A DNA stretch of 64,000 nt from Artemia franciscana (lineage: Eukaryota; Arthropoda; Branchiopoda; Anostraca; Artemiidae): the NCBI RefSeq assembly GCF_032884065.1, contig NC_088868.1, forward strand, positions 36,296,890 to 36,360,889, read 5' to 3'. Shown here piece after piece: positions 13,456 through 55,252 of this stretch; positions within the stretch are counted from its first letter, which is position 1, and each line of letters starts with the position of its first letter. A model generated the notes under the pieces. That model had not been told where the DNA came from. It did not search any database and saw nothing but the letters and a program-made list of their open reading frames with translations. Position numbers and translations under genes: made by a program.

Positions 13456-13508
13456 TGAAATGAGTGACGGTAATCTAGTAGAAATTTAGAATTACCATAA
13501 ATATATAT

Positions 13509-13857: not shown

Positions 13858-13908
13858 GTTCATTAACTCATAAAACAATTAACAAACGCTTAAAAACAAT
13901 TCATATTC

Positions 13909-14010: not shown

Positions 14011-15427
14011 TTAGAAGCGTAAAAACAATACAGACATAACAATTGCTGAAGTATTAAGCAATAAAAATACTTTGAGGTGATAAACTAAAATGAAGTTATA
14101 CCAGTTCAATGACTGAAACGGGCAAGGACACGAGAATTGTGAATAGGTGTGAAAGTAACAATCCAAAAATAAGTGATGAACAATTAAGGAAAATGCAATT
14201 AGTATTTTTAAAACTTAAATTTAAAAAAAAGTACAAGTGGTGATTTGTTATATAACCTTGTATATTTTTACACTCTAATGTTAGAATACCAGGGATCAAT
14301 TTAAGGGAAAATTTAATATAATAGATAAAATTGATTATAATTCAAATAAAAACAAACGATTGGAACCAGGTATTCATTTGTAAACACAGTTAATGTCAAG
14401 TGCTGTCGTTATGTAATTTTAAGAAGTAGGGACATAGCTTTGAATAATCATTCTAAAGTGAATAATGAAAATATTTAATGGACAAAATAGAATTTTGGAA
14501 AGAAAGGGATCAGTCTAGTTGATGAGGACATCAATCTACAACGGGAAAGGGTATATGAAACATATAGGCCAGCCACCCCCCCCCTTATAAAATTCAGGAC
14601 CAAATCTCTTATTCATACCCCCTTAGTAAATTTCAAATTAAACGTCTTCGAAGCATATTTAAGTTTTAAAGTTAAATTCAATTCTCCACAAGATCCGTGA
14701 GTATAAGTTGAATTATTTGTTATTTCAGTAAGCGAAAAGTTACAAAAAACAAAAAAGCTTCCTTTTGAATCATCCAATCAAAATCAAATCTCTATTACTG
14801 GTTTATATGAACCTTTGTTTTTTTTTAATAAAAAAAACAGAAGGGAAAATCCTTGTTCCCTTCTCTTTTGTCCCATGGGGGCGGAGACTGGTATCATTAT
14901 TGGAAAATACCAGTAATATTGCGATTTTTTCAGTAGAGGTCACCTGCCCAAGTCAACTGTCGAGTTCTTGTTTTAGAAATCCAGTTTGAGTCTTATATTA
15001 GCACGACGCAGGCAGCCAGTTAGTTCAGTCGAGTACTGGCGTGTACCATTTCATGCTATAGATTATTGAAGTGGTCATATCCAAAGTTGTATGTAAGTAC
15101 GAAAATAAAATTATTGTCTTATAATCATTTTTGTCTATGAGCTAAGGCATCAGATACAGTTCCTCTAGTCTTTCAGGCACGGTCCCAAGGGAATCTATAC
15201 TGTTTAAGAGACCTGAACATCCCAAAGATGATTCTGTCTCCAAGATTACTGGAGATTATTCACAGAACCTTCTTATTGTGTTAGTTATTTAGCTCTAATA
15301 TCAAGATCTGAATATCTCATACCGATATTAAGCTACCAAGACCTAGAAAAGTCCCAATTACCTCGTAGCAACAAAAAGCAAAAACACCTCCCAATTTCAC
15401 TCAATTTATTATAACTCCCCCCCGTAA
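13909..15427 (+). repeat. 5' LTR of element A, 5'-truncated and diverged
   Basis: Corresponds to the last ~1.65 kb of the complete LTRs at 30391-33235 and 54511-57348. Shared blocks include the 105 nt module near its start, the AACAATTGGAACCAGGTATTCAT-type block (14357-14380), a poly(A) signal AATAAA at 15104-15109 and the conserved 3' part with CATCAG, ACAGTTCCTCTAGTCTT and AAGGGAATCTATA. It ends CCGTAACA. The 5' portion that begins TGTAATAATC in the others is missing. It is visibly more diverged than the two full LTRs are from each other. Confidence 0.8.
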
Positions 15428-15428
15428 C

Positions 15429-15440
15429 AGTGGCGCGGTC
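15429..15440 (+). promoter_or_regulatory. Primer binding site (tRNA-type), element A
   Basis: TGGCGCGGTCTT follows the LTR end (GTAACA) after one base. TGGCGC plus GTC is the form used by errantivirus-type elements that prime from a tRNA 3' end. The same motif follows the LTR at 33238. Confidence 0.7.
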
Positions 15441-15720: not shown

Positions 15721-16740
15721 ATGGCCCAGGAACAAGATGAACTATTAAAAGCGCAACAAATTATTGCAACTAAGGTAGAAACTGCAAAATCATTACCAGA
15801 ATATGAAGGAGATACGGACGTTGATCAATTCAACATCCATTTAGGACAATTCGTAGAAAGGATAAAAATTGACTTAAGTGTTAAACAATATGCTACCCTT
15901 AAGACTAAAAGGAAAGGCACTAACGTTTTTAAAGCAAATTGAAAACAATTACCACATCAACAATTAACTCGATAGAGTTATTGCAACAGGCCTTCCAGAA
16001 AAGATTCATTGACACTAGTTCAATGAATAAACTGAAACATAACCTAGTAACATTTGAACAGACTTAAAACGTAAGAGGATATTTGCACAAGATTAGAATC
16101 GCAACAGAAGCGCGATACGGTCCAGGTGAAGGGGAATTATATGAAAAAAATAATACTCAATGCATTTAAACAGGGACTCACCCAAAACAATATCGTCTAT
16201 TAATCGCAAAAAATATTGATAACTTAGAACTAGTTCAGGAAGTGGAGAGCCGTAGAAATAGACTCAATTGTCCTACAGCATCAAAAATTATCAATAAATG
16301 CAGTAGAAAACAAAACCGCTATAAAATCAAGAAATCCCACTCTGCGACTTTTCTCCCGAGAATCATCGCTAAAACCCATTCGAAATCAAATTCGAACCAC
16401 CACACCTCCAAGACAAGTACGTTTTGCCCCCGATAATCAATTAGGATCACAAACCAATAATGAACCACTAAGGTGCTAGACCTGTAACCGATTGGGTCAT
16501 ATAGCAAGGAATTGTTTTGTGAACAACAATTATAGCCATACATATCGATATCGCGGAAGGACAAATCAACCTAGTAACGGTTGGAATAGAAATACAAGAG
16601 GTAGTTATATCAGCCGACAGCAACAGTATAACAACTCCAACTCAAATAATAATCAAGAAAACCAAAGTAGAACAAATGAAAGTTCTACACCAAACATCTG
16701 GGAACCTCAGGGAAACAATACAAGCCTCCAAAATTCGTAG
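15721..16740 (+). pseudogene. gag: gag, broken, with CCHC zinc knuckle
   Basis: The ATG at 15721 opens 73 codons (MAQEQDELLKAQ start, then SLPEYEGDTDVDQF, typical of gypsy-type capsid openings). After a frameshift the capsid core continues (LLQQAFQKRF, NVRGYLHKIRIATEARYG). A zinc knuckle C-x2-C-x4-H-x4-C lies at 16474-16515, but a TAG stop occupies the second knuckle position. A Gln/Asn-rich basic tail follows to 16740. Gag would form the particle and bind RNA. At least three frameshifts or stops make it non-functional here. Confidence 0.8.
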
Positions 16741-16800
16741 GACCAAAGTTTGGCGGTAGGCACACTTATAGGTCCTCACCAGTGATTATACCATTTTTGA

Positions 16801-19141
16801 GTGCAAATAATAATAATATGTTACCAATATTTGAAAATTTTAATGTATGGAATATTTATTTTTCAGCCCTTATAGATTCAGGGGCGACAGTAAATGTGAT
16901 AAATACATCCGTATTTAACAAGTTGCCCAATTATATTAAACAATGAATGTATATTATGTGTCCCAACTTATCAAGCGTAACCGGGCATAATCTGGACGAA
17001 AGGAGAACTGTGTATCTAAACTTACGCAAGGACAACAGAAATTTCCATACTCGATTTGTAATTTGTAAAAATTTTCCATACGAAGCCATGATAGGCGCTA
17101 ATTCTATAAAAGCCAATAAAATATTATTCGATGTAGCAAATTCAAAATTTATATACCCGAAGGGTACCAAATCAACAATAGATAACATACAAGCAAACAA
17201 GGTAAAGGAGAACATAGGCAATATGAAAGAGTATAGAAAGAAACAAATTAAAGAAATTTCTTATTTATGGAAAAAACTAACTAGTGTAGAGATTCCCAGG
17301 AAAAAACCAAGAGATAATATTCTAAACTTAATAGAAGAAACTCATAAAGAAAAATAGTATGAATTTTTAGTACGAAAAACTAAAATTCCCCGGAATCAAT
17401 GCAAAAAGTCCAAATATCCCAAATGCTAGAACCCACTAATGATAAAAACGAAATTTGGATAGCCTCACCACTGGAGGATATTTCGAAAAAATATAACATG
17501 CGAGAACAAATCATAAATTACGAAAAGGGTGAAGGTTACATTTGGGTAACGAACACTCACGCAAATGACCTGATTACCTTAAGCAAAGGAACGAGTTTAG
17601 TAGAAATACAAACAGTATCGAAAACAGATATAAATAATTGAAAAAAAAGCTTAGTGAATAATATAAATATTGAAGTTGACAAGGAATATCCCCTGACAAG
17701 AATTCAATTTCTTGCAAAATTCGAACTAAATCACATAACTGACATTCCATTGAAACAAAAATTATGCGATTTACTATGGGAATATAAAGATGTTTTTTCG
17801 ACATCTGAAGACGACATAGGACTTATCCCATTTTATGAACATGCCATCCAAACTAAGGGACTACCAGTGGCAAAACAGCCCTACCGTATCCCATATAAGC
17901 ATAAGGAATGGCTAACAAATAAAATCCAGGACCTCGAAAGAAACCAGGTCATAAGACCAAGCATAAGTCTATATTCTGCGCCCGTTGTACTTGTGCCAAA
18001 GTAAAATAATGATCTTAGGTTAGTAGTAGATTATAGAGCCCTGAATAAGCAGGTGCTCAGTGACAATTTTCCTCTACCTAGAAAAGCTGAAATTCTAGAT
18101 TCCATATCAAATAAAATATTTACTTCCCTAGATTTGACACAAGGCTATCAAGTAAAAATAGCAGAGGGGGATGTATACAAAACCGCATTTTCTACAACAG
18201 AATGTGGGTCTTATGAATATTTAAGGTTACCTTTTGGACTAAAAAATAGTTCAAGTGCACTGTGTAGACCCTTACTTCACTTATTAAGAGGTCTAAATAA
18301 TAAAATTCACTCCGTGGACGATGTGATTTGCATGGACAAAGATCCCAAAGACCGTTTAGTAACCTTAGCTAAAGTATTCGAGAAATCTAGAGAATGTAAT
18401 TTAAAATGTAGACCAGAAAAATTGAATCTTCTTCAAACAAAACTAACATTTTTAGGAGTAGTTGTAACACAAGGACAAATTTCTCCATACCCTGAAAAAA
18501 TTAAATTTGTTAAAAATAAAAAACCCCTCCAAACTATTAGGCAATTACGAGGAATATTAGGATTAATGAGTTATCTTTGAAAATTCATAAGGAATTACGC
18601 ATAGGTAGCGAAACCACTAACTGACCTTACTTGAAGGAACCCACATAAGATTATTTGGTCTAGGAAAGCTCAAGAATCCTTAGATCACTTAAAACAGACT
18701 CTTATTTCAGAACCTATATTATCATTACCAGAGTTCCAATCAGGATAATTTGTTGTTACAACGGATGCCTCAGCCAAGGGAATTGGGGCGATTTTCTCCC
18801 AAATAATAAACGGAGAAGAAAAAGTTACAGCGTACGCTTCTCGTACCCTCACCCCCGGAGAAAGTAACTCTGCTAAACAGTTTGAATTATTATCAATTAT
18901 ACATCATCTCGATAAGTTTAGGCATTTTTTAGTAAGAAGAAAATTTAAACTACGTTCCGACCATAAAAGCCTACAATATTTACAGACCTTCAAGAAGCCA
19001 ACAGGGATACTCGCGAGATGGATACTAAAAATCCAAGATTTAGACTATGAAATTGAATATCTTAAGGGAAAACAAACTGCCCCATGTGATTATCTAAGTA
19101 GATTTCCAAATAATACTCCTGTAAAAATGAAAACGAAGAAG
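16801..19141 (+). pseudogene. pol: pol: protease, reverse transcriptase, RNase H; broken
   Basis: Aspartic protease motif ALIDSGATVNVI has its catalytic D at 16875-16877. A linker (17399-17641, with a VTNTHANDL..KGTSL pattern) leads to the gypsy-type RT: KQPYRIP, VLVPK followed by a TAA stop (18002-18004), LRLVVDYRALN, FTSLDLTQGYQ, YLRLPFGLKN and SVDD at 18311-18322, where the usual Tyr of YXDD is Ser. RNase H has TTDAS (D at 18764-18766), YASRTL, FELLSI and LRSDHKSLQ. The RNase H end (CDYLSRFPN) lies near 19107. Further TGA, TAG and TAA stops fall between 18578 and 18750. Order and motifs place it in the Ty3/gypsy (Metaviridae) group. Confidence 0.9.
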
Positions 19142-19400
19142 TTAACACAATAAAAGCGAAATACGCTCCAAAAAGTAAAAATTTAAAAATAAAACCAATA
19201 ATCCGGTTAATGAGGAACACAAAAGCAGCCCGTTTTCATTAAATAGCATCAAAATATGTCAAAAGAAAGACAATATATGCGCTGCTCTAATAGATTATTT
19301 CTAAAATGATAAACAACTACCTGATACTAGGAAATCATTCAAAAAGAAATTGATAAATTCTATTATGATTTAGATGAAAAAATATTATGTAGAATAATGA
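19142..19400 (+). pseudogene. Remnant leading to integrase; core missing
   Basis: Fragments in changing frames read QKKDNICAALIDYF and IDKFYYDLDEKILCRI, like the spacer between RNase H and integrase in gypsy elements. No HHCC zinc module and no D-D-E core follow; unrelated sequence begins instead. So integrase appears deleted or replaced in this copy. Confidence 0.45.
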
Positions 19401-19504
19401 TGGTAAAGAGGTGTACGCTGAAACACTGTACCTTAACTACGATTTAACAAAATTTTAACCTCATACATATAGATTTGGCTTAAAATTAGCAAATACCCCT
19501 AAAT

Positions 19505-19980
19505 ACCCCTAAATACCAACCCGCGAGAGGAGAAGTAAAAATAAAATATTCAAATAAAAGTAATAAAGGAAAGAATTTGACAAGCCTTCAACTATTAATA
19601 AGAAAACTACAACAAAGATTTAATATAAGCTATTGGTTTTGTAAGAGCCCCAATTAAACCGATCTACTTTTGACTGATAAATGTAGGCCACCTAAAATTT
19701 GTTATAAAATCGAAGAAAATAAAAATTGTATTAAGTACAAAGAAGTACACCACCCCTTAGATGAAATCCGACATTATGCCAGATTTACGTATGACCCAAC
19801 GTCCCCAGAATACGCAGTAAGGGGAAATAAATTTTTTTTAAAAAGAAAAAAATCGGTAGAAGCAAAAAAGACACGTATAAAAGTAAATTAAAATAAAAAA
19901 ATTCAAACAATAAAGAAAATCTACAATTTTTTAGACGAAACACCAGAAGGACTCCAGGCTGAAAAGGTAATTACTCATTA
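19505..19980 (+). pseudogene. Unknown accessory ORF (X), two in-frame stops
   Basis: A single frame from about 19505 to a TAG at 19978-19980 is open except for two stops, after SYWFCKSPN and at 19889-19891. It is lysine-rich, with HYARFTYDPTSPEYAV in the middle and a GLQAEKVITH ending. A related C-terminal tail (EKTSVNQVTAN) ends at 21245, just before the second SOCS-box gene, so this ORF and the SOCS gene seem to have been duplicated together. I do not recognise a family. It could instead be a displaced part of pol. Confidence 0.35.
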
Positions 19981-20026
19981 GCTAATTAGCCTGCTTATAC
20001 GCGTAACTAGTACTAACCGGGGAAAA

Positions 20027-21074
20027 ATGGCGCGACGAAGAACCTTAAGTAGTACCGATGCTTTAAGACCCAACCAAGACCTGATATTTGCGAGACCAGA
20101 ATTTTGGATTTCAAATAAAACCCAAAGTTTACCAACCTCTCGGTAATAGACTATGAATTACGTGAAATAATCTTCGAATCCGCAATAACTAATGCAATAA
20201 GGAACTTGCAATATAATACCTTAAGTTCTCTATTGCAAGTTCCCGTTATTTTTAAAGATCATTTCAATATACACGGAATGATCATTCTATTATACGGCTC
20301 CTTTACACAGGATATAATGAGGAAAGATTACAATTATAGGCACGAAAATGCTTTATACACCTTCGCAGCCCTACTCCAAGCAATGCCCCCCGCTAAGTAT
20401 CCTTTAATAGCATCTTTAATACGCGAAAATCTTTGGCACACGCAACAAGAACCAGGTTTCAAGATAGTGGGGCCCTTAAAGTTTCTGGAGTTGCTACTAG
20501 ACGTGAATTAAAAAATAGTGGAAAATGAAAATATATTGTCGGGAATATATAAGAATTATTTATGGTATAGTGCCGATTTTGACCCAATAATTGTAAACAA
20601 TACAACCCATTATATTTATGATGAACAGTATATAGAATAAAAAAATGTAACGATAAAATTCTAAATGAACGATGAAAATTTTGGATCAGAAATTTTGCCA
20701 GATAAAGACATCATTGTGTATGAAAAATTCCTAGACACAGCTAGCCCGCTATGCTTCCGTAAACAATTGATTTATAAGATAATTCACACGACCTCAAATA
20801 AACTCAGTCTAAAAGATCAATGCAGGAAGCAAATACGGCAAATGTTAAGGAAAAGGACATTCATTACTCCATACATAGCATCCAAATACCCGCTGTCCTA
20901 AAGAAATATATAATGTACATCGAAAACGGTCCCGAATTCGACAACAAAGACTTCCAATTAACGTTTAAAACCCCCTACCTTTTAAAATCAGAGTATAATT
21001 TACTGGCCAATAGTGGACAAATTTTGAGAATTACGGAAAAATATGACATTGACGATCCTAAAACAGTGTTTTAG
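20027..21074 (+). pseudogene. SOCS-box protein, first paralogue, frameshifted
   Basis: The ATG at 20027 begins a frame (MARRRTLSS, then KTQSLP) matching the start of the intact gene at 21291. A frameshift near 20143 leads to 20206-20511, which aligns with residues about 78-175 of that gene (SFTQDIMRKDYNY, KYPLIASLIRENLW, GPLKFLELL). Stops follow, then 20665-20901 gives the BC-box S-L-K-D-Q-C-R-K-Q-I at 20806-20835. A last frameshift near 20860 leads to SIQIPAVLKKYI, the Cul5-box position. A SOCS box binds Elongin B/C and Cullin-5. The N-terminal domain is unknown. It is a dead paralogue in tandem with the live-looking one. Confidence 0.65.
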
Positions 21075-21117
21075 TAAGCTTTTTCCACACGCTTTATGTA
21101 ATTTTTCTAATTTGTAG

Positions 21118-21245
21118 ACAAAGAAGGACTGTTTAAAATAAAAGAAAAATTTGGTTGGCTGCGAAAAGGAACAATCAATACCTTAATAAACACGTCATAC
21201 GCAATTCTAGAAAAAACCAGTGTCAATCAGGTAACCGCCAATTAA
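21118..21245 (+). pseudogene. Duplicated tail of ORF X
   Basis: A short frame ending INTSYAILEKTSVNQVTAN sits in the same position relative to the second SOCS-box gene as the end of ORF X does to the first. Both are followed by a similar block with AATTA, CTAA and TTGCTTATA before the next ATG, which supports tandem duplication of a two-gene unit. Confidence 0.4.
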
Positions 21246-21290
21246 CTAACTAACTTGCTTATAACTAACAAACATTGAAAAAGAAATATA

Positions 21291-22346
21291 ATGCCATTAA
21301 AAAGAACTTTAAGTTATCCCAACCTTACCAGGTTGAAGATTGGGGAAAGTTTTGATGTAAAAACTAGAACAATACAAAGTCCCCCAAAATACTCCAAGAA
21401 CCGAACAACTTGGTTTCCGTGTAAAACCCAAAGTTTGCCAAACCTGTCTAAAATTGACCACGATTTATTGGACCGAGATTTAGAAATTGCCGTTAAGAAT
21501 GAAACAAGAGATTTACGTTACCAAACTCTCTACCTCCTACTCGAAGTTCCTCTACTTATCACCAATAATTTAATAACGAGAATTTTATTTATCTTGTCAT
21601 TCTGTTCGTTTACACGCAAGATAAGAAGAGAAAACTTCCAATATAAACAACAACTTGCGTCTTGGACTTTTACGATCTTACTTGACAAAATCTCCCTCGA
21701 AAAATACCCTCTAGTAGCAAAATTGATCAGCGAAAATTTCTGGAAAATCTATAACGAAAAAGGCTATACGATCATATGGCCCCTAAGATTTTTGTCAATA
21801 CTGATAAAAAGAAATACAAATGTCTTGTTGGAAAAACCAAGCGTACTATACAAAATTTACAAAGATTACAAGACCCATTATTCAGCTAGTAACTTAATAG
21901 GAAACGGCCGAAAATTCCAATTTTATGAACGAGAATACGATGAACTAAAGAAAATAATCTTTAACAGTAGCAAATGCGATGACAATTTTGCGTCAAAAAT
22001 AGCGCCTCAAACAGATGTAATCGTATTTGAAAAATTAATGAGCTGTAGAAACCCCTTATATTTCCATAAAATATTAATTTTCAAAATAATCCGTAACATG
22101 TCAGTACCTTTAACTTTAAAAGAACAGTGCAGGAAGCACATCCGTCTTCTCATGCGAAAGGCAAGTATGAATTACACTTTGTGGAGCCTTCAATTACCTA
22201 AAGGTTTACAAAAATATCTAATGTTCGCTGAGGACAATTCGGAAAATAACAGTCAAATATCTGAATTAACCTTTTGGTCAGCTCACATTCCAAAATCAAG
22301 ATTTCTTAACATGTCTAGACGGGCCAATTTTCACTATACCAAGTAA
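21291..22346 (+). CDS. SOCS-box accessory protein, second paralogue, intact
   Basis: 351 codons uninterrupted, with the ATG in the context ATATAATGC. Residues 1-65 are basic and unstructured-looking. Residues 66-260 form a mainly helical region without a named domain (RYQTLYLLLEVP, SFTRKIRRENFQYKQ, KYPLVAKLISENFW, WPLRFLSIL). Residues 273-313 read as a SOCS box: the BC-box T-L-x-x-x-C-x-x-x-I at 275-284 fits the Elongin C consensus, and SLQLPKGLQKYL at 299-310 sits where the Cul5 box lies. Family knowledge: SOCS-box proteins load substrates on Elongin B/C-Cullin-5 ligases. The N-terminal region would then bind a target, possibly a host factor (inference). It lies between pol and env on the same strand, flanked by its broken paralogue and a 2H phosphoesterase. 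No ankyrin or SH2 domain is seen. Confidence 0.75.
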   Translation: MPLKRTLSYPNLTRLKIGESFDVKTRTIQSPPKYSKNRTTWFPCKTQSLPNLSKIDHDLLDRDLEIAVKNETRDLRYQTLYLLLEVPLLITNNLITRILFILSFCSFTRKIRRENFQYKQQLASWTFTILLDKISLEKYPLVAKLISENFWKIYNEKGYTIIWPLRFLSILIKRNTNVLLEKPSVLYKIYKDYKTHYSASNLIGNGRKFQFYEREYDELKKIIFNSSKCDDNFASKIAPQTDVIVFEKLMSCRNPLYFHKILIFKIIRNMSVPLTLKEQCRKHIRLLMRKASMNYTLWSLQLPKGLQKYLMFAEDNSENNSQISELTFWSAHIPKSRFLNMSRRANFHYTK

Positions 22347-22530
22347 TTTCGGAATCAACTGTGGAACAAAACTGTCTACTTTGTAAATTTTTACTTTGAA
22401 CCCCTGAGTAACCAAACAGCTAATCCCGCGATATTAATTATGAAAACATGTCTAACTCCACCTAATGATTATTAAAATAACCCAACTTAATCTTTTTTTT
22501 GAAATTGGACTTGTCTAAAGATCTGGAATA

Positions 22531-23168
22531 ATGGAATCTCGACCAAATTACTTTCTCGCAGACCAGATTAAAAACGCTCAGATAAGGATGAATGCTTCAA
22601 TTTTGCAAAAACATATAATTGAAAAAAAACCCTACCTTAACAAAAGCCTTAATCAAACAAAGCTCTTTCCATCTAACGTTAAAAGTGTTACATCTGAAAA
22701 ATAATAGTGAAGTTGAACGGGTAAAAAGTGCTTTCGTCAAAGCCATAGAAAAATATGAACGAGATTTTACAAACGAAAAACTTTATCTAGATTTTCAAGG
22801 CATCGGAGATTTCTTTGAGCAAATTCTATATGCAAAATTAGAAAACGAAGATGTAGTTAAAACACGCTTAAATCCAGTTATAGAAGAAATTACTAGAGAA
22901 ATTACCAAGAGCGGTGTACAGCTTGCAAATCAAGAAAGCTGGAAGCCACATTTAACGTTAGTAGACCTAAAAAAAAGTAAAAAAGCTAAGGAAAGAGGCA
23001 CGAAAACTCCACCCCTCCCTATCTTCCAATTTTAAAAACATGAGATTTGGAAGAGAACTAGTAAATAGTATACAATTACTATCTATTTTCGGGCCAAAAA
23101 GCAAAGAAAATTATTACGAATTAATATCAGAAATAGAGTTTGGACAAAAAGTCCCTAAATGCAACTAA
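22531..23168 (+). pseudogene. AKAP7-like 2H phosphoesterase, copy 1, frameshifted
   Basis: The ATG at 22531 (MESRPNYFLADQIKNAQI) gives the AKAP7-like opening. After a frameshift in the A-run at about 22622-22629, the main frame carries the first H-x-T (SFHLTLKVLHL, His codon 22670-22672), LDFQGIGDFF and ILYAKL, and the second H-x-T in WKPHLTLVDL (His codon 22949-22951). One extra A in the run near 22972 shifts the C-terminus, whose homologous sequence ends at 23168. Both catalytic His-x-Thr pairs are present. The 2H family hydrolyses 2'-5' or cyclic phosphodiester bonds; in some RNA viruses relatives remove 2-5A. It sits 184 bp after the SOCS gene. The two homopolymer shifts could be decay or assembly error. 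Confidence 0.8.
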
Positions 23169-23338
23169 ATTTGAAAAAAAAATAAAGTAAAAACGTTTCA
23201 GGAATAGGAAAGAGAACGAAACAGGAAATATGTTTGTAAGGTAATAAATTTATAAATAAATTACGCTTACCAACACTAACATTGCAAAAAAAACCTCCGT
23301 ATAACTATCTTTATCCATATGCCAACAGTCATATAAAT

Positions 23339-23533
23339 ATGTTTAAAATTACCAAAACCGCTAATCTTGTAAAAATTTTACAGGCCATTATAAATAAGCG
23401 TAAGAATATATCCCACGCAGAAAATCTAATCTTAACACTTAGCCTACTGACCCCTTATAATATTAATATATATTCGATAAGATTTGATTGGCTAAAAAAA
23501 GGCAGAGCTCTAGAGGTGACTATTGGACATTGA
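23339..23533 (+). CDS. Small conserved ORF, unknown
   Basis: 65 codons from the ATG at 23339 (MFKITKTANLVKILQ start, with LTLSLLTPYNINIYSIRFDWL). The first ~50 codons are retained with one substitution per ~25 codons at 43893-44072 in the second element, where the end differs by an indel. The protein is short, has one hydrophobic stretch, and is not recognised. It follows the 2H phosphoesterase by 170 bp. Confidence 0.4.
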   Translation: MFKITKTANLVKILQAIINKRKNISHAENLILTLSLLTPYNINIYSIRFDWLKKGRALEVTIGH

Positions 23534-27244: not shown

Positions 27245-30200
27245 ATGATGATCTTAACATTTTTGATGACCATGTGTATAAGTGCCCATACACAAGATGT
27301 CGTAAAGCATGGGATAATATTCAAACACGAAAATTCACTTCTAACTAGTAACAACGCTTGAAAAATATTTATGAAGGTAGACCCTAAGCCATTTGAAACA
27401 TTGTTCCAACAAGTTATAAGACTGGAGAAAAATACATTTGATCTGAAAGAATCAACTTTTCAATTTTTAAAATCAGACAAAGGACTACAGGCAAGCAAAA
27501 GCAACCATAAAGAAAAGAAAGACATGCCATCCCCTACCTATCCCAAAATCAAAATTAAAAGAATAGTAGATGATTTTGATGCAAAAATGGCCAAAGTTGA
27601 TAAAGCTATAGGACTCGGGAAAGCCATTGAAAAGAGAAAAAAAGATCAATTAACGAAAACCAAAACTCAGATACCTATAAAGAGACCCAAAATATAATTA
27701 AACCAATTAAGACCCAACTTAGACAAAGAAAATTTTATGATAGACAATATGCATTATTAAATGAATTGCCCACAGTATGGAATTTCTTCAAGGAACTATG
27801 GAAGGGACCAAAACAAGCTAACAAGGCTGAGAAGAAGCCCGTACAGGAAGAAATAAATTTGTCTGAAATAAAACCAACAGAAGTTGAAACGAAAAACGTA
27901 AGAAATATTTCCCCAAACACACAACAAACCGCTGCAATTGAAACCCGAACAACAAACATTGTATCTGACCTTTCAACACGAACAAATAAAATACCAGAGA
28001 TAATAAGGGGTATAGAAAATATTGACGTAGGATCCCATTCCACTAATGGTACCAGCAAACCGAAATACAAGTTTAAATGTCAATACTTTTCTAAAATAAT
28101 AAATGTTACAACGGAAGCTACCAAAACCAACACGACCTCCCATATTCTATATCTTACTTTTAATACCGAAGAAAACACAAACGAATTAATGGAAATCTCC
28201 AAAAGCACCTAAAAGAAATGAGAAACGACTACCTTCTGGAAATACGATACTCAGAACGAGGAAACCACAGCAGAAACCGAATTTACTCCAACAGCAATCG
28301 AAACTGAACATACCCCAATAACAGAAGTGGAAGAAACAATCCCCTCGTCAAACCCCACGACGACTGACCCACAATCAATAGAGTTAGACACCTCAATGTC
28401 AGAAATTATTACAGAAACTATCCCTGGTGTACTAATGCCAATTAAGAACGATGAAATTTTAATAACAGTAAGGCAACCATGGCAATCAACTAGCTGGTTA
28501 TGGACTTCTACGAAGAAGGGAAGAATACAAGTTAGATGGGAAATTCCTTTTGTCGAGACAGACTATGGTCGAACACGATGTATGGATGGAGACAAAAAAT
28601 GTCAAGATGAAAATCACTGGAGAGAATGTTGGACAATAGATGGTAAAAAAAACTTGCGCGCTTCTGGCCATGGCTGACGAACCAGCAAAGAATCAATTAG
28701 AACCCCTCCCGGAATTAACCATGGAAAATGCCCATAAAATATCAACTCATCAGGCATTCCTCATATTATATAGACAAAGGTCACAAGCGTTATTTGAACT
28801 ATTTAATACAGAAATACAAAAACTTAAACAAAGCACTACACGTATATTTGAAGTATTTTTCCGGAGGAGTAAATATAAAAGATCAACAAGTTAATTTCCA
28901 ATAGTAGGGGAGCTTGCTTCTCGACTATTCGGTTTGTCAACCGAAGAAGATTTAAATACATTAAGAGATAATGGTAAAAGACTCAAAACAGCCATGAATA
29001 CAACACTACATGTGCGAAAAATACAAGCAAGTGTCGCCAATTATCAAAAAGACAAAATCGAGGCCATATCCAAGAAAATCTCAAGAACAGTCAACACAAT
29101 GAACTATTAAAAAAATGAAGTAGACAGTAATCTCTGATTCCAGCCTAACGATGGTGTCATTCGACATTGTTATTATGTCTCTGTTGAACTTAGCCACTGA
29201 TGTCAGTAAATTTGAATTCGCGTTATTTGAATTAACAGGAGGGCCCCTTTCTTACGACTTAGTGGATCCCTCGGATCTTAAGAACATCCTAAACAAAATA
29301 AAAACTCACTTAACATTTGGTCTCCACTTCCCAGTAGAACCAGAAGTAACTAACTTGTTTTTATATTATACCAAACTAAAGGTGCATATCACCGAGATCA
29401 ATGAGCAACTATTTGCTGTAGTAACAATTCCTTTAATTAATCAACAATCCATATATGACCTATACAAAATATCTACCTTCCCCTTCAACATTAAAGAGAC
29501 AAACTCCTTCATGAGCATCATCCCAGAAGCGGAATATATGTTAATAGATCGAGACAGAAGAAAATACGCACTAGCAAATGCCGAAGAATTAAAAGAATGC
29601 GTGTCATTTAAAAATTTGGTCTGCCAACTAACATTACCTATATATAACGTAAAGATAGGATCAAGCATGCTAGATCTATTCCTAAAGGAATCACAGCAAC
29701 AAGATATTCCTGATTCTTGATAAGCCTTAATAGGAAATACCAAAAGAGAAACTTTCATTAATTTGCGGAACGACTAATGGTTATTTACAGTACCTAAAAA
29801 GACGGTAGGAACCCTATCCTGCTATAACAATACAGAAAAAATTGACCCCAGCTATCGAACTGAAATATTGTTACAGGACGTTGGAACTATTACAATCAAA
29901 CAAGGTTGCAGACTTGTAACTAAAGAAACAACTGTCCAAACACCTCTAATCACAACCAGCACTAACGTCACGAGCCCAAAAACAATAAACTTTCAAGGAA
30001 TAAACTTGTCCTTCACGATTCCGAATATAAATTATGAGAAATCTAAAACATCCATATGGCCAAAAATAGAAAAGATTAAGGGTACAATGCAATTAACAAA
30101 AATAAAGGAAGCGTTAGATATGCAAATACCCTTATTCACTGACGAAGACCAAAGGTTGAAACATGTGGAGAGCCAATACGGTTTGTTCTCACCAAACTCA

Positions 30201-30371
30201 TGGTATAATATTATAATCACTATATTCATGGTATTTATTATTTCACTAACAATAAGAGCGCTACAAACAATTAACTGTGGGAAACTACTGAAGCGAAAAA
30301 GGATAAATAATGATGCAATTGAAGCACAAGAGATGCATCGATTGAACCCTACTACTCCTGATGATATTTAA
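27245..30371 (+). pseudogene. env: env (F-like fusion glycoprotein), broken
   Basis: The ATG at 27245 opens a hydrophobic signal peptide (MMILTFLMTMCIS). A helical region (KPFETLFQQVIRLEKN) follows, then a long Thr/Glu/Ser-rich mucin-like segment around 28080-28440, a Trp/Cys-rich block (WQSTSWLW, CMDGDKKC, HWRECW), a furin-like basic site (RRSKYKR near 28866), and a fusion-peptide-like ELASRLFGLSTEEDL with a long heptad region. The membrane anchor (NIIITIFMVFIISLTIRAL) comes about 45 residues before the end, followed by a basic tail. The design resembles baculovirus F/errantivirus Env, but about 1,040 codons is roughly twice the usual length. Stops and frameshifts (for example TGA near 27358, around 27695, 28209 and 28665) break it. 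Confidence 0.8.
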
Positions 30372-32187: not shown

Positions 32188-33236
32188 TGAAGGAAAATAT
32201 TTCTTAAATTTTAAATCATCATTATAAGGTTATGAAATTATAATAAAAAAATTTATAGACAATGGGGATTAAATGCAATGTTTAAAGAAAGGGATTAGAC
32301 TGATTGATGGGGACATCAATCTACAACGGGAAAGGGGATATGTAACATATAGACCAGCCCCTCCCCCCTCTAGAAAATTCAGTACCAAATCTCTCATTCA
32401 CATCCCCTTAGAAATTCTCAAATACAGGACCAAATCTCCCATCCATACAAACTCTTAAGTTCAAGACTAAATTTCTCAGTCATACCCCTTTAGTAAATTT
32501 CAATTAGAAAAAGATTTAAATAAAATCATATAGGATTTAGCAGTTATTCAATACTTTGGACTACGTGACTTTAGACACAAGTTAAAATGTTATGGAACCT
32601 ACCAACTGGTTTATTTGAACTCTAGGTTTTTTTATTCAAAACCAGAAGGGAAATCCTTGTTACGAAAATAACTTCTGGGTGCGGGGACTAGTCACATGAT
32701 TCGAGAATACCAACAGTAGCGGAGGTCAACCGCCCAGGTCACCAAGACTGTCCGGGGAGTTCTTGTTTAGAAATCGCGTTGGATATATCAGCTCAACGCA
32801 AGGAGCGAGTAGTCAGTTTCATGGGAGTTTTGATAGTCAAGTGCGAGTGTTCATGTGCACCTTTTCATGCTATAAGTTATTGGAGCTATTTTGTCCAAAG
32901 TTGTATGTTGTAAGTAAATAAACCTTATTGTATTTGATCAGCTTCTGTCTATGTACTAGGGCATCAGGTACAGTTCTTCTAGTCTTCAGGTACGGTCCCA
33001 AGGGAATCTATATTGTCTCAGGAGACCTCGAACATCACTGAGATGGTTCTGTCTCCCAGGTTACTGGGGATTATATACAAAGCCTTTTTATTCTGTTAGT
33101 AATTTAGCTCCCATATCTCGTATCCGCATTAAGCTATTAAGACTTAGAAAAGTCCCAAGAACCTCAAGGTAAAAACCCCCACCTAAGTAAAGTTCCCACC
33201 AAACTCATTAAACTCATTAAAACCACCCCGTAACAC

Positions 33237-42770: not shown

Positions 42771-43181
42771 AAACTTGCAACAAAAGTTTCCACACCGGTA
42801 CAAAAGTTTCGGATGTAATCTCTTCGTAAACACCAAAAACAAGAAGAGCAATAGGGAATTTCTCAAGACAGTGGGAAAGAAATTTGAATGAATATTTCGG
42901 CCCTATGTCCAAGAGCCGTCCTCAGCAATTCAAAAATATATACGTAGAAACAAATTACAAGAGGACAAAATCAAGAAAACTAAAATGAAAAGTTTTTCGA
43001 AACAGTCCAAGCATCCTTAGCTCAGCGAAGTTCAACCAGGACTGACAATAAATTGTGATAAAACGAGGCAATTCATTGAAATGAAAGAGAATGATTTAAA
43101 AACACACTTTTAATGTCAGCCTAGCTTTTTTCGCTGCTGATCTCATAGGTCTATTTGTGACAAAAAACGCTCAGATAAGGA

Positions 43182-43758
43182 TGAATGCTTCAATTTTGCA
43201 AAAACATTTTATTGAAAAAAAACTACCTTAACAAAAGCCTTAATCAAACAAAGCTCTTTCCATCTAACGTTTAAAGTGTTACATCTGAAAAATAATAGTG
43301 ACGTTGAACAGGTAAAAAGTGCTTTCGTCAAAGCCATAGAAAAATATGAACGAGATTTTACAAACGAAAAACTTTATCTTGATTTTCAAGGCATCGGAGA
43401 TTTCTTTGAGCAAATTCTATATGCAAAATTAGAAAACGAAGATGTAGTTAAAACACACTTAAATCCAGTTATAGAAGAAGTTACTAAAGAAATTACCAAG
43501 AGCAGTGTACAGCTCGCAAATCAAGAAAGCTGGAAGCCACATTTAACGTTAGTAGACCTAAGAAAAGTAAAAAAGCTAAGGAAAGAGGCACGAAAACTCC
43601 ACCCCTCCCTATCTTCCAATTTTAAAAACATGAGGTTTGGAAGAGAACTAGTAAATAGTATACAATTACTATCTATTTTCGGGCCAAAAAGCAAAGAAAA
43701 TTATTACGAAATAATATCAGAAATAACATTTGGACAAAAAGCCCCTAAATGCAACTAA
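43182..43758 (+). pseudogene. AKAP7-like 2H phosphoesterase, copy 2 (long open frame)
   Basis: The open frame 43276-43758 (160 codons) extends in frame upstream over the first H-x-T motif (HLTF, His codon 43261-43263). The second is WKPHLTLVDL (His 43540-43542). The C-terminus beyond it is intact (KLRKEARKLHP to the stop at 43756-43758). The start is lost: an A-run shift separates it from MNASILQKH near 43182, and element truncation removed the first codons. Compared with copy 1, the catalytic pairs, LDFQGIGDFF and C-terminal region are conserved. It would be the better guide to the family's full C-terminus. Confidence 0.75.
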
Positions 43759-43892
43759 ATTTGAAAAAAAAAAGTAAAAAACGTTTCAGGAAAAGGAAAG
43801 AGAACGAAACAGGAAATATGTTTGTAAGGTAATAAAATATATAAATAAATTACGCTTACTAACACTAACATTGCAAAAAAAAAAACCTATAT

Positions 43893-44072
43893 ATGTTTAA
43901 AATTACCAAAACCGCTAATCTTGTAAGAATTTTACAGGCCATTATAAATAAGTGTAAGAATATATCCCACGCGGAAAATCTAATCTTAACACTTAGCCTA
44001 CTGACCCCTTATAATATTAATATATATTCGATAAGATTTGATTGGCTAAGAAAAAAGAAGGCGGAGCTCTAG
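43893..44072 (+). CDS. Small conserved ORF, unknown, copy 2
   Basis: 59 codons, homologous to 23339-23533. The ends differ because of an indel after FDWL. Conservation of a frame this short between copies with numerous indels is suggestive but weak evidence for coding. Confidence 0.35.
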   Translation: MFKITKTANLVRILQAIINKCKNISHAENLILTLSLLTPYNINIYSIRFDWLRKKKAEL

Positions 44073-47000
44073 AGGTGACTATTGGACATTGGAAAAAAAG
44101 GGGGGAGTAACTATATGTAACTATAGCGCGTTATAAAAAGAAATTAATTTTTTTCATTAATTTTAGAAGTAGCAAATACATTTAACAAAATACAACCTCT
44201 TACCTTGTCCAAAATCTACATGGATTCGTAGCACGGTCCAAACTTTGAGAACACTTCAAAACACAATAACTATAATTGATAAGCATTTGTTCACGAAATA
44301 TACTTATATATCCCGCTTAGATAAACAAAATATGATGTTTCCATCTAAATAACTGAACAATAATTCGTAAGACAAGGACTTTTATATTAAAACAAACGAG
44401 ATGAACCCTTAATTTTCAGGTCAACAATGTTGCATTATCCTATTGAGAAATTGCATATATCAACTTACAATGTGGAACATTGTCCTAAATTTAACTAGCA
44501 CTCAGTCCAAAAAGCAATAAAAGGACATCCTGGTACATCCCCCTTAATGTACTATAATAAAACTTTCAATTATTATCTTCTGAAAAATCAAACGAAACTT
44601 ATTTATGAGCCTAAGTGACAAGTCGTAATACTTCGTAAACTTCGGATGTAATAAACCTGTGTAATGTTCAGATCTTGTCTAATTAGTAAGCACTTCAAAT
44701 CTAAAGGTTTTTCGAAGATGCTGTAATTATAATGCATATATTCAGTCGACATAAATAATTGCGTTAGGAAGGTAATTTCACCTAATAAAAAAATGCGTTT
44801 TTTTTATTCAATCAAGTTGAAAATAACACACTTATCTATTTCCTAACTAACCTGAAGGTTTTATACAAGGAAAACCTTAATGAGAAACAACATTTAATAA
44901 ACCGTATAAAATTACGCCATATTGCGCTGTGTTAGTTAGTAAAACTTAACTAAGATAAAAATGTGCCGCTACGCGCTGCGCTATGTGCCGTATAGAACTA
45001 AAATTAGATGTACTTCATAAAAAAAAAAATTCTTAATAAGTTTGTGTTATCCAAACTACACCATGTGCTGAACAAATGTGCATTTATTAATAAAGTAATT
45101 TAATTTCCTTTTAATCCAAACAAAGTAGTACTATAAACAATACACAGTAGTACTATAAGCCTTAAGAACCTAATTCTCCTTAAGATCATAAATCAATATT
45201 GTTATTAGATTCACTTGTTCAAGTGTCTGTTTGTTTTTTCTTTCCCTATGTAGTGTTAGTTTGTAGACATTTAGCAGTGAAATACTTGCTAAGGTTTGGT
45301 CACTCAATAAAATCATCATCATCATCATCAAACCAATTAATTGTTAAAAGTTCTTTTCTTCGCAAAATTTTTTTTTATATATAAACCATCCCCTTGGTGT
45401 TAAAGTAATTCCTTAACCGACTCTGTTGGTTAAAAATTAAAACAATTTTAATTAAACCTAAATACTATTATTTTAAAGTGTAGGCTATATTAAACTACAT
45501 GCTTAATACATATGTCCGTATGTGTATAAATTTAAATTGAATAATTTTTCTTCCCCTACAGAAAATTTCACAATACATGGTAGTTTAAATAACTCTTTGA
45601 TTGAAACTCGGCTGGAAAAGTGTGATTTATAACAAATATTCATTTAAGCGAAAAAAAGAGGGAAAAAGTGTAAAATTTTTCGAAATTTTTAATCTAATAG
45701 TTTAACTTTCTATGGTACAATCTCTCCCTGATTGCGAGAAAATATAAACTTATATTACAAAAAGACTAATAGCCTACGACTTATTAATTAAGTTAGCCTA
45801 AAATTCTACAAAAATTTAAATTATAAGTCAATTTAAATTATAAGTAAAAGTTTTTTTTTATATTTTTCAACAACTAGGCTACTTAATTTTGAGCTGGAAG
45901 GAGTTCAAGTGCTTCAGAACACTTAACTTGTCGGAAGTCTAACTCTTATACCTTAATACGACACCCTCAGCCAATTTGTGAAATTGTTTGAATAACTATA
46001 ATTATTTCTCAAAGTGCATACAAAAAAAAGAGCTATGATCTTTTAAACATAATTACTAGGCCTTATAATCTTATAATATAATAATAATTCCTCATTTTAA
46101 ATTCCAGACTACATTAACCTATCCATAATTAGATTTTAACCAATTAATTTAAACCAAAAATCGAAACTTTGATAATAAAATATGCCTACCCCTATATTAC
46201 ACCTACACAATCAGTAAGGTAAGCTTCAAGCCGTAACAAACAAATAAATTAATTCATACTATTATCAGACATGTGTTGTTAGAAAAATTTCTTGGTTAGC
46301 AAAATTTTAAATAGTTTTCGTTCTTAATCATCTAAAATCATGAAGAGGTTTAACGGCGATTCTCTCTGAACGCAAGTACTATTATTTCCTTCTATATCCA
46401 GGTATTTTTATAAACAATGGAATAACCTTAATGTAAATGTTGCAAATGTCCATCCATCTCCCTCCAAGCTCGCTTTTAGTAGCGAGTAATGAACAAATAA
46501 TAAGTCTTGAATTAACCCCATCCCAGGCCTAAAACAAAAATTTTTAAAAAAGTTTCTTAAAACAAAAATTATTAGTGACTCAAGTTGGTCCTTTAGTTTG
46601 TAGACAATATACATATTAAAGTACCTAATGATTACAACTTTAAAGTATTACTGTTTTATCTTCTAAAAACACGCACCCTTGATTAATCATCTGACAAAAA
46701 ATTCAACATTTTTGAAGATAGATGCTTAAAATTTTTGCTATAGAGTTCTCTGATACGCCGAATACGATGGTATGATTTTCGTTAAGATTCTATGATTTTT
46801 AGGGAGTGTTTCCCCCTATTTTCCAAAATAAGACAATGTTTCTCAAGCTCGTAACTTTTGATGACAAGAACTAAATTTAATAAAACCTTTTTATTTAGAA
46901 TTAACATGAAAATTCGATTCTTCTGATATATCTTCTAACATCAAAATTAATTCTTTTTTAAGTTTTATTACTATTTAGCCGAGTCGCCCCTTACTTCACA

Positions 47001-47870
47001 ATTCGTTACCACGAACTGTTTGATAGTTTTTTTTACTTTTTTTCACTTCCGGGCGTAAAGTCAAAATACAATAGATGTCTTATAAGCCCATTTAGGTAGA
47101 TGAAAGATGGTGAGTGAATCTCGATAGATGTCCAGGCGAACTGACGTTAGAGAAAATAACCAAATACTTCCTAATTACTTCAATAACGAAAGAATCTTTC
47201 TTGAAATCAGAATAAATTAACTTGCAAAAATAAGCCTGTTTTTGGAATAGGCGATACCACGGATCTTTCGTAATGGTTTTTACGCCCTTTAGCCTATTCA
47301 GACACAGAATCTTCACTAGAAGCGTCTTCGCTATTCTTTGATCCCCTTTTGGTTTTTGACATTGGCCGAAAATCATTCCTTGCTAGAGTTTTATATTTCC
47401 TGGGAGCTTGCCTTTTGATTATTTCATTAGACTAGGAAAGTACTCATCAGGAAATCTTCTAAGGCAGTATATACACCAAGAAGTCTTTCTTAGAACTAAA
47501 TTGTCCTAACCCATGTCAAAGTCTATACACTGATAATATATATTAATTACTTTTGGGACTACTAAGATATTTGCAATTGGACTTTAAAGTTTCGTTACTA
47601 TTGAGCCAAATCGCTCTTTATCACAGTTTGTTAGCACAAACTACTTAAGTATAAATTGATTTTATTAAAAACATTACTTCCTTTCTCAGCTCCAATTTAG
47701 ATTTGTTGATACTTTTAAATTAACTATTTTAATACTATTTTTTGATGACTATAGCGTATTAGCCCCTTAGATCTATGCTCAACAACTCAAATAATACTTA
47801 ATAAATCTCACCGTCACGCAATCCATTTTTCCTTCCTATCATATTTATTCAAGAAATAATTTATTAAATG
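44073..47870. other. Spacer between small ORF and env, copy 2
   Basis: Homologous to 23534-27230 with scattered indels. It includes the antisense exon-like block near 47220-47430 (one stop) and the same (CAT)n run. No sense-strand gene seen. Confidence 0.55.
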
Positions 47871-47880
47871 TTAATTGCAG
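47871..47880 (+). promoter_or_regulatory. Splice acceptor for env, element B
   Basis: TTAATTGCAG lies 7 bp before the env ATG at 47888; same position as in element A. Confidence 0.55.
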
Positions 47881-47887
47881 ATAAGAA

Positions 47888-54491: not shown

Positions 54492-54500
54492 GCCACTTTA

Positions 54501-54510
54501 ACAGCGAGGA
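54501..54510 (+). promoter_or_regulatory. Polypurine tract, element B
   Basis: ACAGCGAGGA directly before the LTR start TGTAATAATC; one change from element A. Confidence 0.65.
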
Positions 54511-55252
54511 TGTAATAATCCGGGAAAATTGAGAGGTCTTTCCCCGTACGTTAACATCCTTTCCCTACTGTAGGAAATATTGTTGGTGTATAACAGCTAA
54601 AAGGCTATGATGCAACATATTGTATTACTTTTTTGCATATACATCAAAAATACTCTTGGCAGAAAATCTTATGTTAATATAGACCTAAAATAAGCACGAA
54701 AAATTCGTTCCTAACTTTTTCATGTGCAAGAGATTTAAGAGGTCATCTCTTGTAATTTTACTGCTCTATTTCCAAACTAAAAATATTCCAAGGCGTGATA
54801 ATTGAAAGGCTATGATGCAAAATGTATTACTTTTCGACTAATCACGCATTGGAAGTTCAAAAATTTTTTTTGGATTAAAGTATGATCCAGAACATATTAA
54901 GACCTCTATGTAATCATATATTTAACTACCCTCTTTAGTTCAGTGTTTTTATATTTACATGTAATCATAATAATAAAGTAATAGTGTAATAACAATAAAA
55001 ATATTCTTAATTACTATATAACCTCATATACCTCACGTTACTTCGAATGTACCTGAAAAATTATTAGAATTTAAAACTTCTTTTAAGAAATTGTACATTC
55101 AATTTCCCTTTGAATGTTTAAATAATATTACTGTTATGCAATTATATGCTATTATTATGCAATTTTATGTTACAATAATGCTTCATGTTATCGTATCACT
55201 AGTATCATTTTATATGTCGACAACATGATTCCTCTTGGAAATTTTTTATTAC

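What the first reader, a model, noticed from the sequence alone, without database searches (positions are those of the whole stretch)
19505..23533. Accessory gene block in an LTR retroelement: two SOCS-box genes, a 2H phosphoesterase and a small ORF
Seen: between RNase H and a spliced-type env, all on the element's strand, lie ORF X, two tandem SOCS-box-like genes, an AKAP7-like 2H phosphoesterase and a small ORF, inside sequence bounded by LTRs. Known: SOCS boxes recruit Elongin B/C-Cullin-5; 2H enzymes cut 2'-5' or cyclic nucleotides; neither is a standard Metaviridae gene. Inference: a captured host-gene cassette that counters host defence, comparable in idea to accessory genes of complex retroviruses.
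Basis: partly seen in the sequence, partly recalled or inferred. Interest (0 to 1): 0.92.

Follow-up and report, generated by a model that had tools for sequence, protein, structure and literature searches.

The report
Retroelement carrying SOCS and phosphoesterase genes
A large retrovirus-like mobile element in the brine shrimp genome carries, besides its usual genes, a conserved extra set of genes that look like a protein-degradation adaptor and a nucleotide-cutting enzyme, tools that other viruses use against host defences.

Summary
The gene block is real and is part of a multicopy retroelement. The 1.27-Gb host genome fits the published Artemia franciscana assembly. The block gives 47 genomic matches, the window included. 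Elsewhere the order is LTR-gag-PR-RT-RNaseH-integrase-ORFK-ORFX-SOCS1-SOCS2-2H-env-LTR, about 21.5 kb, with 4-bp target duplications in both copies checked. Integrase lies upstream in 15 of 16 flanks, env downstream in 5 of 6. ORFX, both SOCS genes and 2H show frame-specific purifying selection (pN/pS 0.32-0.40; 0.73-1.31 in shifted frames); the small ORF does not. A second dispersed family carries SOCS and 2H, apparently after ORFX; its pol context was not established.

The window copy is broken and chimeric: no integrase, ORFX, SOCS1 and 2H frame-broken, and a left LTR about 70% like the right one. Counter-defence (E3-ligase recruitment plus cleavage of a nucleotide messenger) is the best inference but untested; no SOCS donor was found. 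New variant of a known kind: an env-bearing Metaviridae-like element with complex-retrovirus-style accessory genes.

The parts
14556..15429 (+). left LTR, divergent subfamily (5' edge approximate; 3' end CCCCGTAACA followed by PBS-like GTGGCGCGG)
   Evidence: 70% over 608 bp and 83% over 83 bp to right LTR; 3' end motif at 15429
16170..17357 (+). gag/protease region, frame-broken (equivalent of ORFs of copy L009 with zf-CCHC 3.2e-5 and a sub-threshold RVP match, 0.0042)
   Evidence: ORFs; alignment to L009; Pfam of L009 ORFs
17642..18580 (+). reverse transcriptase region; the RVT_1 match is in 18005-18580
   Evidence: RVT_1 7.2e-18
18749..19153 (+). RNase H
   Evidence: PF17917 4.6e-26
19388..19400 (+). 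junction where integrase and following sequence (about 3.3 kb in L009) are missing; left and right halves belong to differently diverged subfamilies
19393..19959 (+). ORFX, truncated and stop-containing here; family pattern DTEF...TDLLL...HHPLxEI
   Evidence: tblastn; family; selection
20024..21071 (+). SOCS1-type gene, frame-broken in this copy
   Evidence: tblastn; SOCS box PF07525 1.6e-8 in open copy L007
21291..22346 (+). SOCS2-type gene (351 aa from its ATG; last part shifted, homology runs to 22383)
   Evidence: PF07525 6.7e-5; relatives P0001-P0004
22531..23165 (+). AKAP7-type 2H phosphoesterase gene, frame broken near both ends; both HLT motifs present
   Evidence: PF10469 1e-21
23339..23509 (+). 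small ORF, not supported as a gene
   Evidence: no frame-specific selection
27362..30371 (+). env, frame-broken here; Baculo_F domain; one open frame of 1045 aa in another copy
32328..32340 (+). polypurine tract GGGAAAGGGGATA just before the right LTR
32341..33235 (+). right LTR TGTAACATATAGACC...CCCCGTAACA (895 bp), itself followed by a PBS-like TGGCGCGG
43163..57348 (+). second copy of the element in the window, lacking the 5' part (2H at 43216-43746, env, LTR 56450-57348)

Best explanation
SHOWN: The block is the accessory region of a large (about 21.5 kb) env-bearing Ty3/gypsy-type LTR element family in Artemia. Four accessory genes (ORFX, SOCS1, SOCS2, 2H) lie between integrase and env and carry the mark of purifying selection across dispersed copies. 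A second dispersed family keeps SOCS and 2H side by side, apparently after ORFX (its pol and LTR context was not established). The window copy is a decayed chimera. INFERRED: the accessory proteins act in trans against host restriction of the element. The SOCS proteins would bring Elongin B/C and Cullin-5 to host targets through their N-terminal region (fold unknown), as Vif does, and the two paralogues would give two target specificities. The 2H enzyme would cut a 2'-5'- or cyclic-linked nucleotide second messenger, as nidovirus NS2, rotavirus VP3, avian poxvirus LigT-like and phage Acb1 enzymes do. In an arthropod the likely substrate is a cGAS-like-receptor product rather than 2-5A. ORFX may be a DEDDh-type nuclease acting on RNA or DNA.
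For: Multicopy and colinear: 47 DNA matches including the window itself, 26 of them covering at least 3.9 kb of the 4,029-base query. Integrase in 15 of 16 left flanks. Env in 5 of 6 right flanks. LTR pairs at 97.3% over 824 bp and 99.8% over 1006 bp, with flanks giving 4-bp duplications attt and ctat. Order ORFX-SOCS1-SOCS2-2H in 15 of 15 copies, the window's own included. pN/pS ORFX 0.32, SOCS1 0.40, SOCS2 0.36, 2H 0.37, against 0.73-1.31 in shifted frames; gag, PR, IN, ORFK and env parts give 0.18-0.44 in frame. 26 of 116 SOCS-type matches cover residues 1-368 of the query without a stop. 47 of 53 high-ranking SOCS2 rows have 2H within 700 bp downstream. The second family keeps SOCS (PF07525 1.8e-6) next to 2H (PF10469 1.2e-39), with ORFX where expected in another of its copies. 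BC-box/Cul5-box pattern in SOCS1 of 9 and SOCS2 of 12 of 15 copies (one of each with a stop inside); both HxT motifs in 13 of 15. Viral AKAP7-like PDE capture is an established route (PMC10835031, start of abstract) and avian poxvirus LigT-like PDEs cut cGAMP (PMC11410667, passages).
Against: No activity, binding or expression data here. Of six flank pairs compared, two gave no LTR match at all (L011/L026, L013/L027) and one only 360 bp. The C12 copy that is 97% like the window stays alike for 1.26 kb beyond the right LTR, so these two are probably one insertion duplicated, not two. Many copies are broken: full stop-free frames in a single tblastn piece in 6 of 15 for SOCS2, 2 of 15 for SOCS1, 4 of 15 for 2H. 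STING was not found by the exon-wise search, but no control rang either, so that is uninformative; one Mab-21 match. The SOCS2 box scores only at the Pfam cut-off, and its Cul5 box lacks the first P of LPxP (motif recalled). No meaningful solved relative by sequence for SOCS or ORFX. The ORFX model is poor (pLDDT 37.7). No SOCS donor identified.
Confidence: 0.6

Rival explanations
1. The accessory genes serve the element's own life cycle rather than counter-defence: for example the 2H enzyme trims RNA or tRNA-primer ends, ORFX processes nucleic acid intermediates, and the SOCS proteins set the level of Env or of a cell-cycle factor.
For: 2H and DEDD-type enzymes commonly process RNA ends (recalled); the primer-binding site looks tRNA-derived; env spans 1045 aa with an N-terminal part under selection, so the element has unusual biology.
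Against: An AKAP7-type 2H gene next to SOCS-box genes parallels known viral countermeasures; related env elements manage without such genes (recalled).
Confidence: 0.2
2. The genes are passively carried host cargo with no function for the element.
For: Many copies, the window's included, are broken.
Against: Frame-specific purifying selection in four genes, similar in strength to gag (0.44) and the N part of env (0.375), SOCS and 2H kept in a second family and 26 of 116 SOCS-type matches open over the whole query.
Confidence: 0.04
3. The block belongs to another mobile element or DNA virus nested in the retroelement, and the association is accidental.
For: In the window the joint to pol is a recombination junction and the left LTR is of another subfamily; L014 has an LTR instead of pol just upstream of the block; for the second family no pol was found in the 4 kb fetched.
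Against: Integrase lies upstream of the block in 15 of 16 flanks and env follows in 5 of 6; in two copies LTR pairs enclose pol, block and env together with a 4-bp duplication.
Confidence: 0.03
4. Some copies are now host genes (domesticated), and the selection seen is host-level.
For: NCBI gene models exist for element-type 2H proteins in Artemia franciscana (P0007, P0012, P0016).
Against: Constraint is seen over up to 105 pairs of dispersed copies and in pol and env alike, which fits selection on the element lineage.
Confidence: 0.08

Closest known systems
Errantivirus-like Metaviridae (gypsy, ZAM and kin; F-type env)
   Same: LTR TG..CA ends, polypurine tract, tRNA-type primer site, 4-bp target duplication, gag-PR-RT-RNaseH-IN order, Baculo_F-type env
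   Different: about 21.5 kb; an additional ORF after integrase plus ORFX, two SOCS genes and a 2H gene before env; env of 1045 aa. No accessory gene of this kind is known to me in this group (recalled), and 'accessory' does not occur in the main text of the one insect ERV paper term-searched (PMC12992720)
Vif of lentiviruses
   Same: in idea: a retroelement-coded adaptor for Elongin B/C-Cullin-5 (abstract starts)
   Different: here a C-terminus matching the cellular SOCS box, two tandem paralogues; no sequence relation was tested; arthropods lack APOBEC3 targets (recalled)
AKAP7-like viral 2H phosphodiesterases (betacoronavirus NS2, torovirus, rotavirus VP3) and LigT-like PDEs of avian poxviruses / phage Acb1
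   Same: 2H family, both HxT motifs, carried by an infectious-type element
   Different: carried by an LTR element of a crustacean; closest by sequence to AKAP7 (PF10469 1e-21; AKAP7 chain 5jj2 3.9e-15), with Corona_NS2A only 0.056 in the window and 0.015 in an open copy; the words retro-, transposon, invertebrate and arthropod do not occur in the main text of PMC10835031
Host SOCS-box proteins (ASB/SOCS families)
   Same: BC-box and Cul5-box order, I..L.xP..LK.YL ending (motifs recalled)
   Different: the N-terminal region has no significant match in Pfam or among PDB chains

Membership tests
Metaviridae-type LTR element with env | paired LTRs with TG..CA ends and short target-site duplication | tested here: met
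   two copies: 97.3% and 99.8% LTR identity, 4-bp flanks attt and ctat; a third pair 94.4%, a fourth 360 bp at 93.9%, two of six pairs without match; not met for the window copy (70% over 608 bp)
Metaviridae-type LTR element with env | PR-RT-RNaseH followed by integrase | tested here: met
   RT and RNase H in window; rve 6e-9 in L009, its zinc-binding domain just below cut-off; IN in 15 of 16 left flanks, none in window; RVP in L009 below cut-off (0.0042)
Metaviridae-type LTR element with env | env gene | tested here: met
   Baculo_F 1.1e-12; 5 of 6 right flanks
Errantivirus genus proper | placement in an RT tree with gypsy-type errantiviruses | not tested
   no tree with named reference elements was made
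SOCS-box proteins | SOCS box at or above Pfam cut-off, BC and Cul5 boxes | tested here: met
   PF07525: window SOCS2 23.5 bits = cut-off, L007 SOCS1 1.6e-8, second family 1.8e-6; motif pattern in SOCS1 of 9 and SOCS2 of 12 of 15 copies
SOCS-box proteins | binding to Elongin B/C and Cullin-5 | not testable with these tools
   needs binding assays
2H phosphoesterases, AKAP7 type | two HxT/S motifs in an AKAP7_NLS-type domain | tested here: met
   PF10469 1e-21 window, 1.2e-37 in an open copy; both motifs in 13 of 15 copies
2H phosphoesterases, AKAP7 type | hydrolysis of 2-5A or cyclic dinucleotides | not testable with these tools
   needs enzyme assay
DEDDh exonucleases (for ORFX) | match to an exonuclease family or fold | tested here: inconclusive
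   no exonuclease family or PDB chain matched; AlphaFold model pLDDT 37.7; only the pattern DTEF / TDLLL / HHPLxEI, with E where D is expected in motif III (recalled pattern)
Complex-retrovirus accessory genes | expression as spliced subgenomic messages | tested here: inconclusive
   an AG preceded by 12 or more of 15 pyrimidines within 120 nt upstream was found for SOCS1 in 1 of 15, SOCS2 in 0 of 14, 2H in 2 of 13 copies; no RNA data

The most novel reading that the evidence does not exclude
A metavirid of a crustacean has independently become a 'complex retrovirus': it carries a two-adaptor Cullin-5 hijack module, a captured AKAP7-type enzyme that destroys a 2'-5'- or cyclic-linked nucleotide alarm signal, and a divergent DEDDh-type nuclease. 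This would imply that Artemia restricts retroelements through a nucleotide second-messenger pathway and through a ubiquitin-degradable restriction factor, both still unknown.
Probability: 0.25. Interest if true: 0.92.

Novelty: new variant of a known kind. Interest (0 to 1): 0.78.

Why it matters
Accessory genes that defeat restriction factors are known mainly from vertebrate complex retroviruses (recalled). A retroelement family in an arthropod with selected SOCS-box and 2H genes would show the same solution evolved outside Retroviridae. It would also point to undiscovered host pathways (a nucleotide second messenger and a degradable restriction factor) that act on retroelements in invertebrates. 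The substrates are testable with purified proteins.

Tried and rejected
Rejected: the small ORF as a gene. Nested foreign element or virus. Neutral cargo. Tried without result: relatives in IMG/VR by three protein scans, none confirmed. Phage records, no match. PDB by sequence for SOCS and ORFX, nothing or only matches with E of 0.33 and above. PHROGs, nothing below E 0.04 for the four proteins tried. ORFX structure poor, so it was not searched against fold libraries. SOCS structure: no job was ever accepted because the machine was busy. Host AKAP7 donor: the best PF10469 match (L040) looks like ASCC1 (recalled name) and is 23% identical to the element's 2H over the aligned part; the other 149 listed matches were not classified one by one, so host AKAP7 may be among them or split by introns. 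STING search uninformative. Splice-acceptor scan inconclusive. Pol context of the second family: the 4 kb fetched (L042) shows ORFX after a run of N and no pol-like ORF that I recognised by eye, not scanned with Pfam. Literature: no paper held with both 'retrotransposon' and '2H phosphoesterase', none with 3 of retrotransposon / SOCS box / 2H phosphoesterase / AKAP7. In some searches I saw only the listed titles and abstract starts (3 to 20 papers each, some of over a thousand found), and none named such an element. Subscription papers and most preprints are not held.


Full report
HOST AND COPY NUMBER. The window is G000:C6:36296890-36360889 of a 1,270,528,402-base, 6468-contig genome. The named relatives of the 2H gene (3 of 12 hits) are all Artemia franciscana proteins. 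The published female A. franciscana assembly has 1,270,721,445 bases in 6486 scaffolds (PMC11492255, passages). I therefore take the host to be A. franciscana; this is inference from size and homology. DNA 19505-23533 gives 47 matches in this genome, the window itself included; 39 are longer than 2 kb and 26 cover at least 3.9 kb of the 4,029-base query, at 85-100% identity (39 of 346 candidates scored, so a lower bound). A protein search with the SOCS2 relative P0001 gives 116 matches (111 of 819 candidates scored; both SOCS types are among them), 26 of them covering residues 1-368 with no stop (my count). Family PF10469 gives 150 matches (150 of 275 candidates scored). Of 53 high-ranking SOCS2 rows, 47 have a 2H match within 700 bp downstream on the same strand (with 101 of the 150 2H rows).

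WHAT THE WINDOW HOLDS. Pfam finds RVT_1 (7.2e-18), RT_RNaseH (4.6e-26), SOCS_box (6.7e-5, exactly at the cut-off of 23.5 bits), AKAP7_NLS (1e-21) and Baculo_F (1.1e-12) in the expected order on the + strand. ORFX and the first SOCS gene are frame-broken here and are recognised by tblastn with open frames of other copies. The 2H frame is broken near both ends. No integrase was found in the window by tblastn. The right LTR is 32341-33235; the left LTR ends at 15429 and matches the right at 70% over 608 bp and 83% over 83 bp. Left of it lie an env fragment (13609-13856, 98% to 29745-29992) and sequence like that between env and the right LTR (13905-14419, 79%), while the right LTR is followed by a primer-site-like TGGCGCGG: on both sides the LTRs may be shared with neighbouring copies. 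The gag-to-RNaseH part is about 75-84% like other copies, but the block-to-env part is 97% like the copy on C12. I read this as a chimeric copy joined near 19388-19400 with loss of integrase. The likeness to the C12 copy runs 1.26 kb beyond the right LTR, so those two are probably one insertion later duplicated. A second copy lacking the 5' part lies at 43163-57348, with part of env repeated in tandem.

THE ELEMENT ELSEWHERE. I fetched 8.5 kb left of 16 block copies and 10 kb right of 6. Integrase (rve 6e-9, zinc-binding domain just below cut-off in L009) is found in 15 of 16 left flanks, in several of them in more than one piece. The exception, L014, has an LTR directly upstream. An LTR like the window's right LTR is seen in 11 of 16 left flanks; some of the others do not reach that far. 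Env is found in 5 of 6 right flanks; the sixth (L027) has other sequence after about 2 kb. Of six left/right flank pairs, four gave an LTR-like match (94.4% over 779 bp, 93.9% over 360 bp, 97.3% over 824 bp, 99.8% over 1006 bp) and two none. In the copy at C4:19330877 (97.3%) attt stands on both sides; in the copy at C4:26412481 (99.8%) ctat stands on both sides. From the coordinates the two elements span about 21.7 and 21.3 kb. A polypurine tract precedes the right LTR and a TGGCGCGG primer site follows the left one. One right flank holds a 1045-aa open env frame.

SELECTION. In 15 block copies (the window's own, seven further best matches and seven others) the order ORFX-SOCS1-SOCS2-2H holds in 15 of 15; the copies were picked through a DNA match to the block, so this mainly excludes rearrangement. 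Pooled pN/pS over pairs of copies, stop codons left out, was: ORFX 0.32 (105 of 105 pairs below 1), SOCS1 0.40 (102 of 105), SOCS2 0.36 (105 of 105), 2H 0.37 (103 of 104). The same codons read one or two bases out of frame gave 0.73-1.31. The small ORF gave 0.68 in frame and 0.65/0.71 out of frame, so it has no support; it was not matched at all in 3 of 15 copies. As yardsticks: gag 0.44, PR 0.19, IN 0.18, ORFK 0.34, env N part 0.375, env F part 0.23, against 0.77-1.95 in shifted frames. Pairs are not independent, and copies decay after insertion, which pushes the in-frame values up. Many copies are broken: a full stop-free frame in one tblastn piece was seen in 6 of 15 for SOCS2, 2 of 15 for SOCS1 and 4 of 15 for 2H.

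DEPTH. A second dispersed family (L041) has one SOCS gene (45% to SOCS1, 40% to SOCS2) followed by 2H (54%). In another copy of it (L042, C6) ORFX, partly hidden by a run of N, ends about 70 bases before the place where SOCS should start, judged from the distance to 2H. So the family appears to be ORFX-SOCS-2H, but I inferred this from two copies by coordinates only, and its pol and LTRs were not seen. SOCS1 and SOCS2 are 39% identical. Divergent ORFX relatives (P0021, P0022; 58-61%) are in the databases without organism names. The gene set is thus older than the present copies, and the SOCS gene was duplicated, or one copy lost, between families.

WHAT THE PROTEINS LOOK LIKE. SOCS1/SOCS2: the C-terminal pattern SLKDQCRKQI...L.IP..LKKYL fits BC-box plus Cul5-box (motifs recalled), found by pattern in SOCS1 of 9 and SOCS2 of 12 of 15 copies, one of each with a stop inside. 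The N-terminal region of about 250 residues has no significant match in Pfam or the PDB. 2H: closest solved relatives are AKAP7 chains (3.9e-15); both HxT motifs are kept in 13 of 15 copies. ORFX: no convincing family match. The conserved IIDTEF, TDLLL and HHPLxEI remind me of DEDDh exonucleases, with E in place of the last D (recalled pattern). The low-confidence model (pLDDT 37.7) shows a strand leading into the first motif and a helix starting in the third, which is too weak to count.

MECHANISM. The steps shown are: conserved genes, on the element, under selection, with these domains. The inferred steps are: SOCS adaptors degrade host restriction proteins through Cullin-5; 2H removes a nucleotide alarm signal; ORFX is a nuclease. 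Precedents: viral capture of AKAP7-like PDEs (PMC10835031, start of abstract; a term search of its main text found no retro-, transposon, invertebrate, arthropod or cGAMP), cGAMP-cleaving LigT-like PDEs of avian poxviruses (PMC11410667, passages), and Vif (abstract starts). Arthropods lack RNase L (recalled), so a cGAS-like-receptor product is the more likely substrate. In this genome one Mab-21 match and no STING match (uninformative because its controls were silent as well) were found.

VERDICT. Real, multicopy and selected: a new variant of an env-bearing Ty3/gypsy-type element with complex-retrovirus-like accessory genes. No paper listed in my searches of the held library (listings only) names it, but that library lacks most subscription papers.

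Noticed in passing
window 48770-53999: A 1.75-kb stretch of env is present about three times in tandem (94.6-97% identical) in the second copy; biological or assembly-made is unclear.
   Followed up: partly
window 13509-14419: A 100-N gap is followed by a 248-bp env fragment (98% to 29745-29992) and by sequence like that between env and the right LTR, just left of the left LTR; possibly the end of a neighbouring element or a mis-join.
   Followed up: partly
window 35491-36366: An inverted LTR (94% to the right LTR) lies about 2.3 kb right of the element, and the right LTR is itself followed by a primer-site-like TGGCGCGG.
   Followed up: partly
L019 next to the left LTR (copy C4:26412481): The primer site there is followed by about 38 bases that read to me like the complement of a tRNA 3' half including the T-arm, longer than in the other copy looked at; no tRNA gene was searched.
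   Followed up: no
L009 6852-7358: A lysine/serine-rich ORF between integrase and ORFX (ORFK) shows frame-specific constraint (pN/pS 0.34) and has no Pfam match.
   Followed up: partly
L030 4018-7155 (minus strand): Env of 1045 aa has an N-terminal part of about 480 residues with its own constraint (0.375); unusual length for an F-type env (recalled).
   Followed up: partly
window 3400-5879 and 10961-13508: Two 2.5-kb stretches 97% identical, about 7.6 kb apart start to start, left of the element.
   Followed up: no
window 59118-61893: Tandem array with a period of about 130 bp (self-comparison).
   Followed up: no
P0017 and P0022: ORFX relatives also occur in JGI sequence records (P0017 stands for 17 member sequences); perhaps brine-shrimp DNA or RNA in saline samples.
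   Followed up: no
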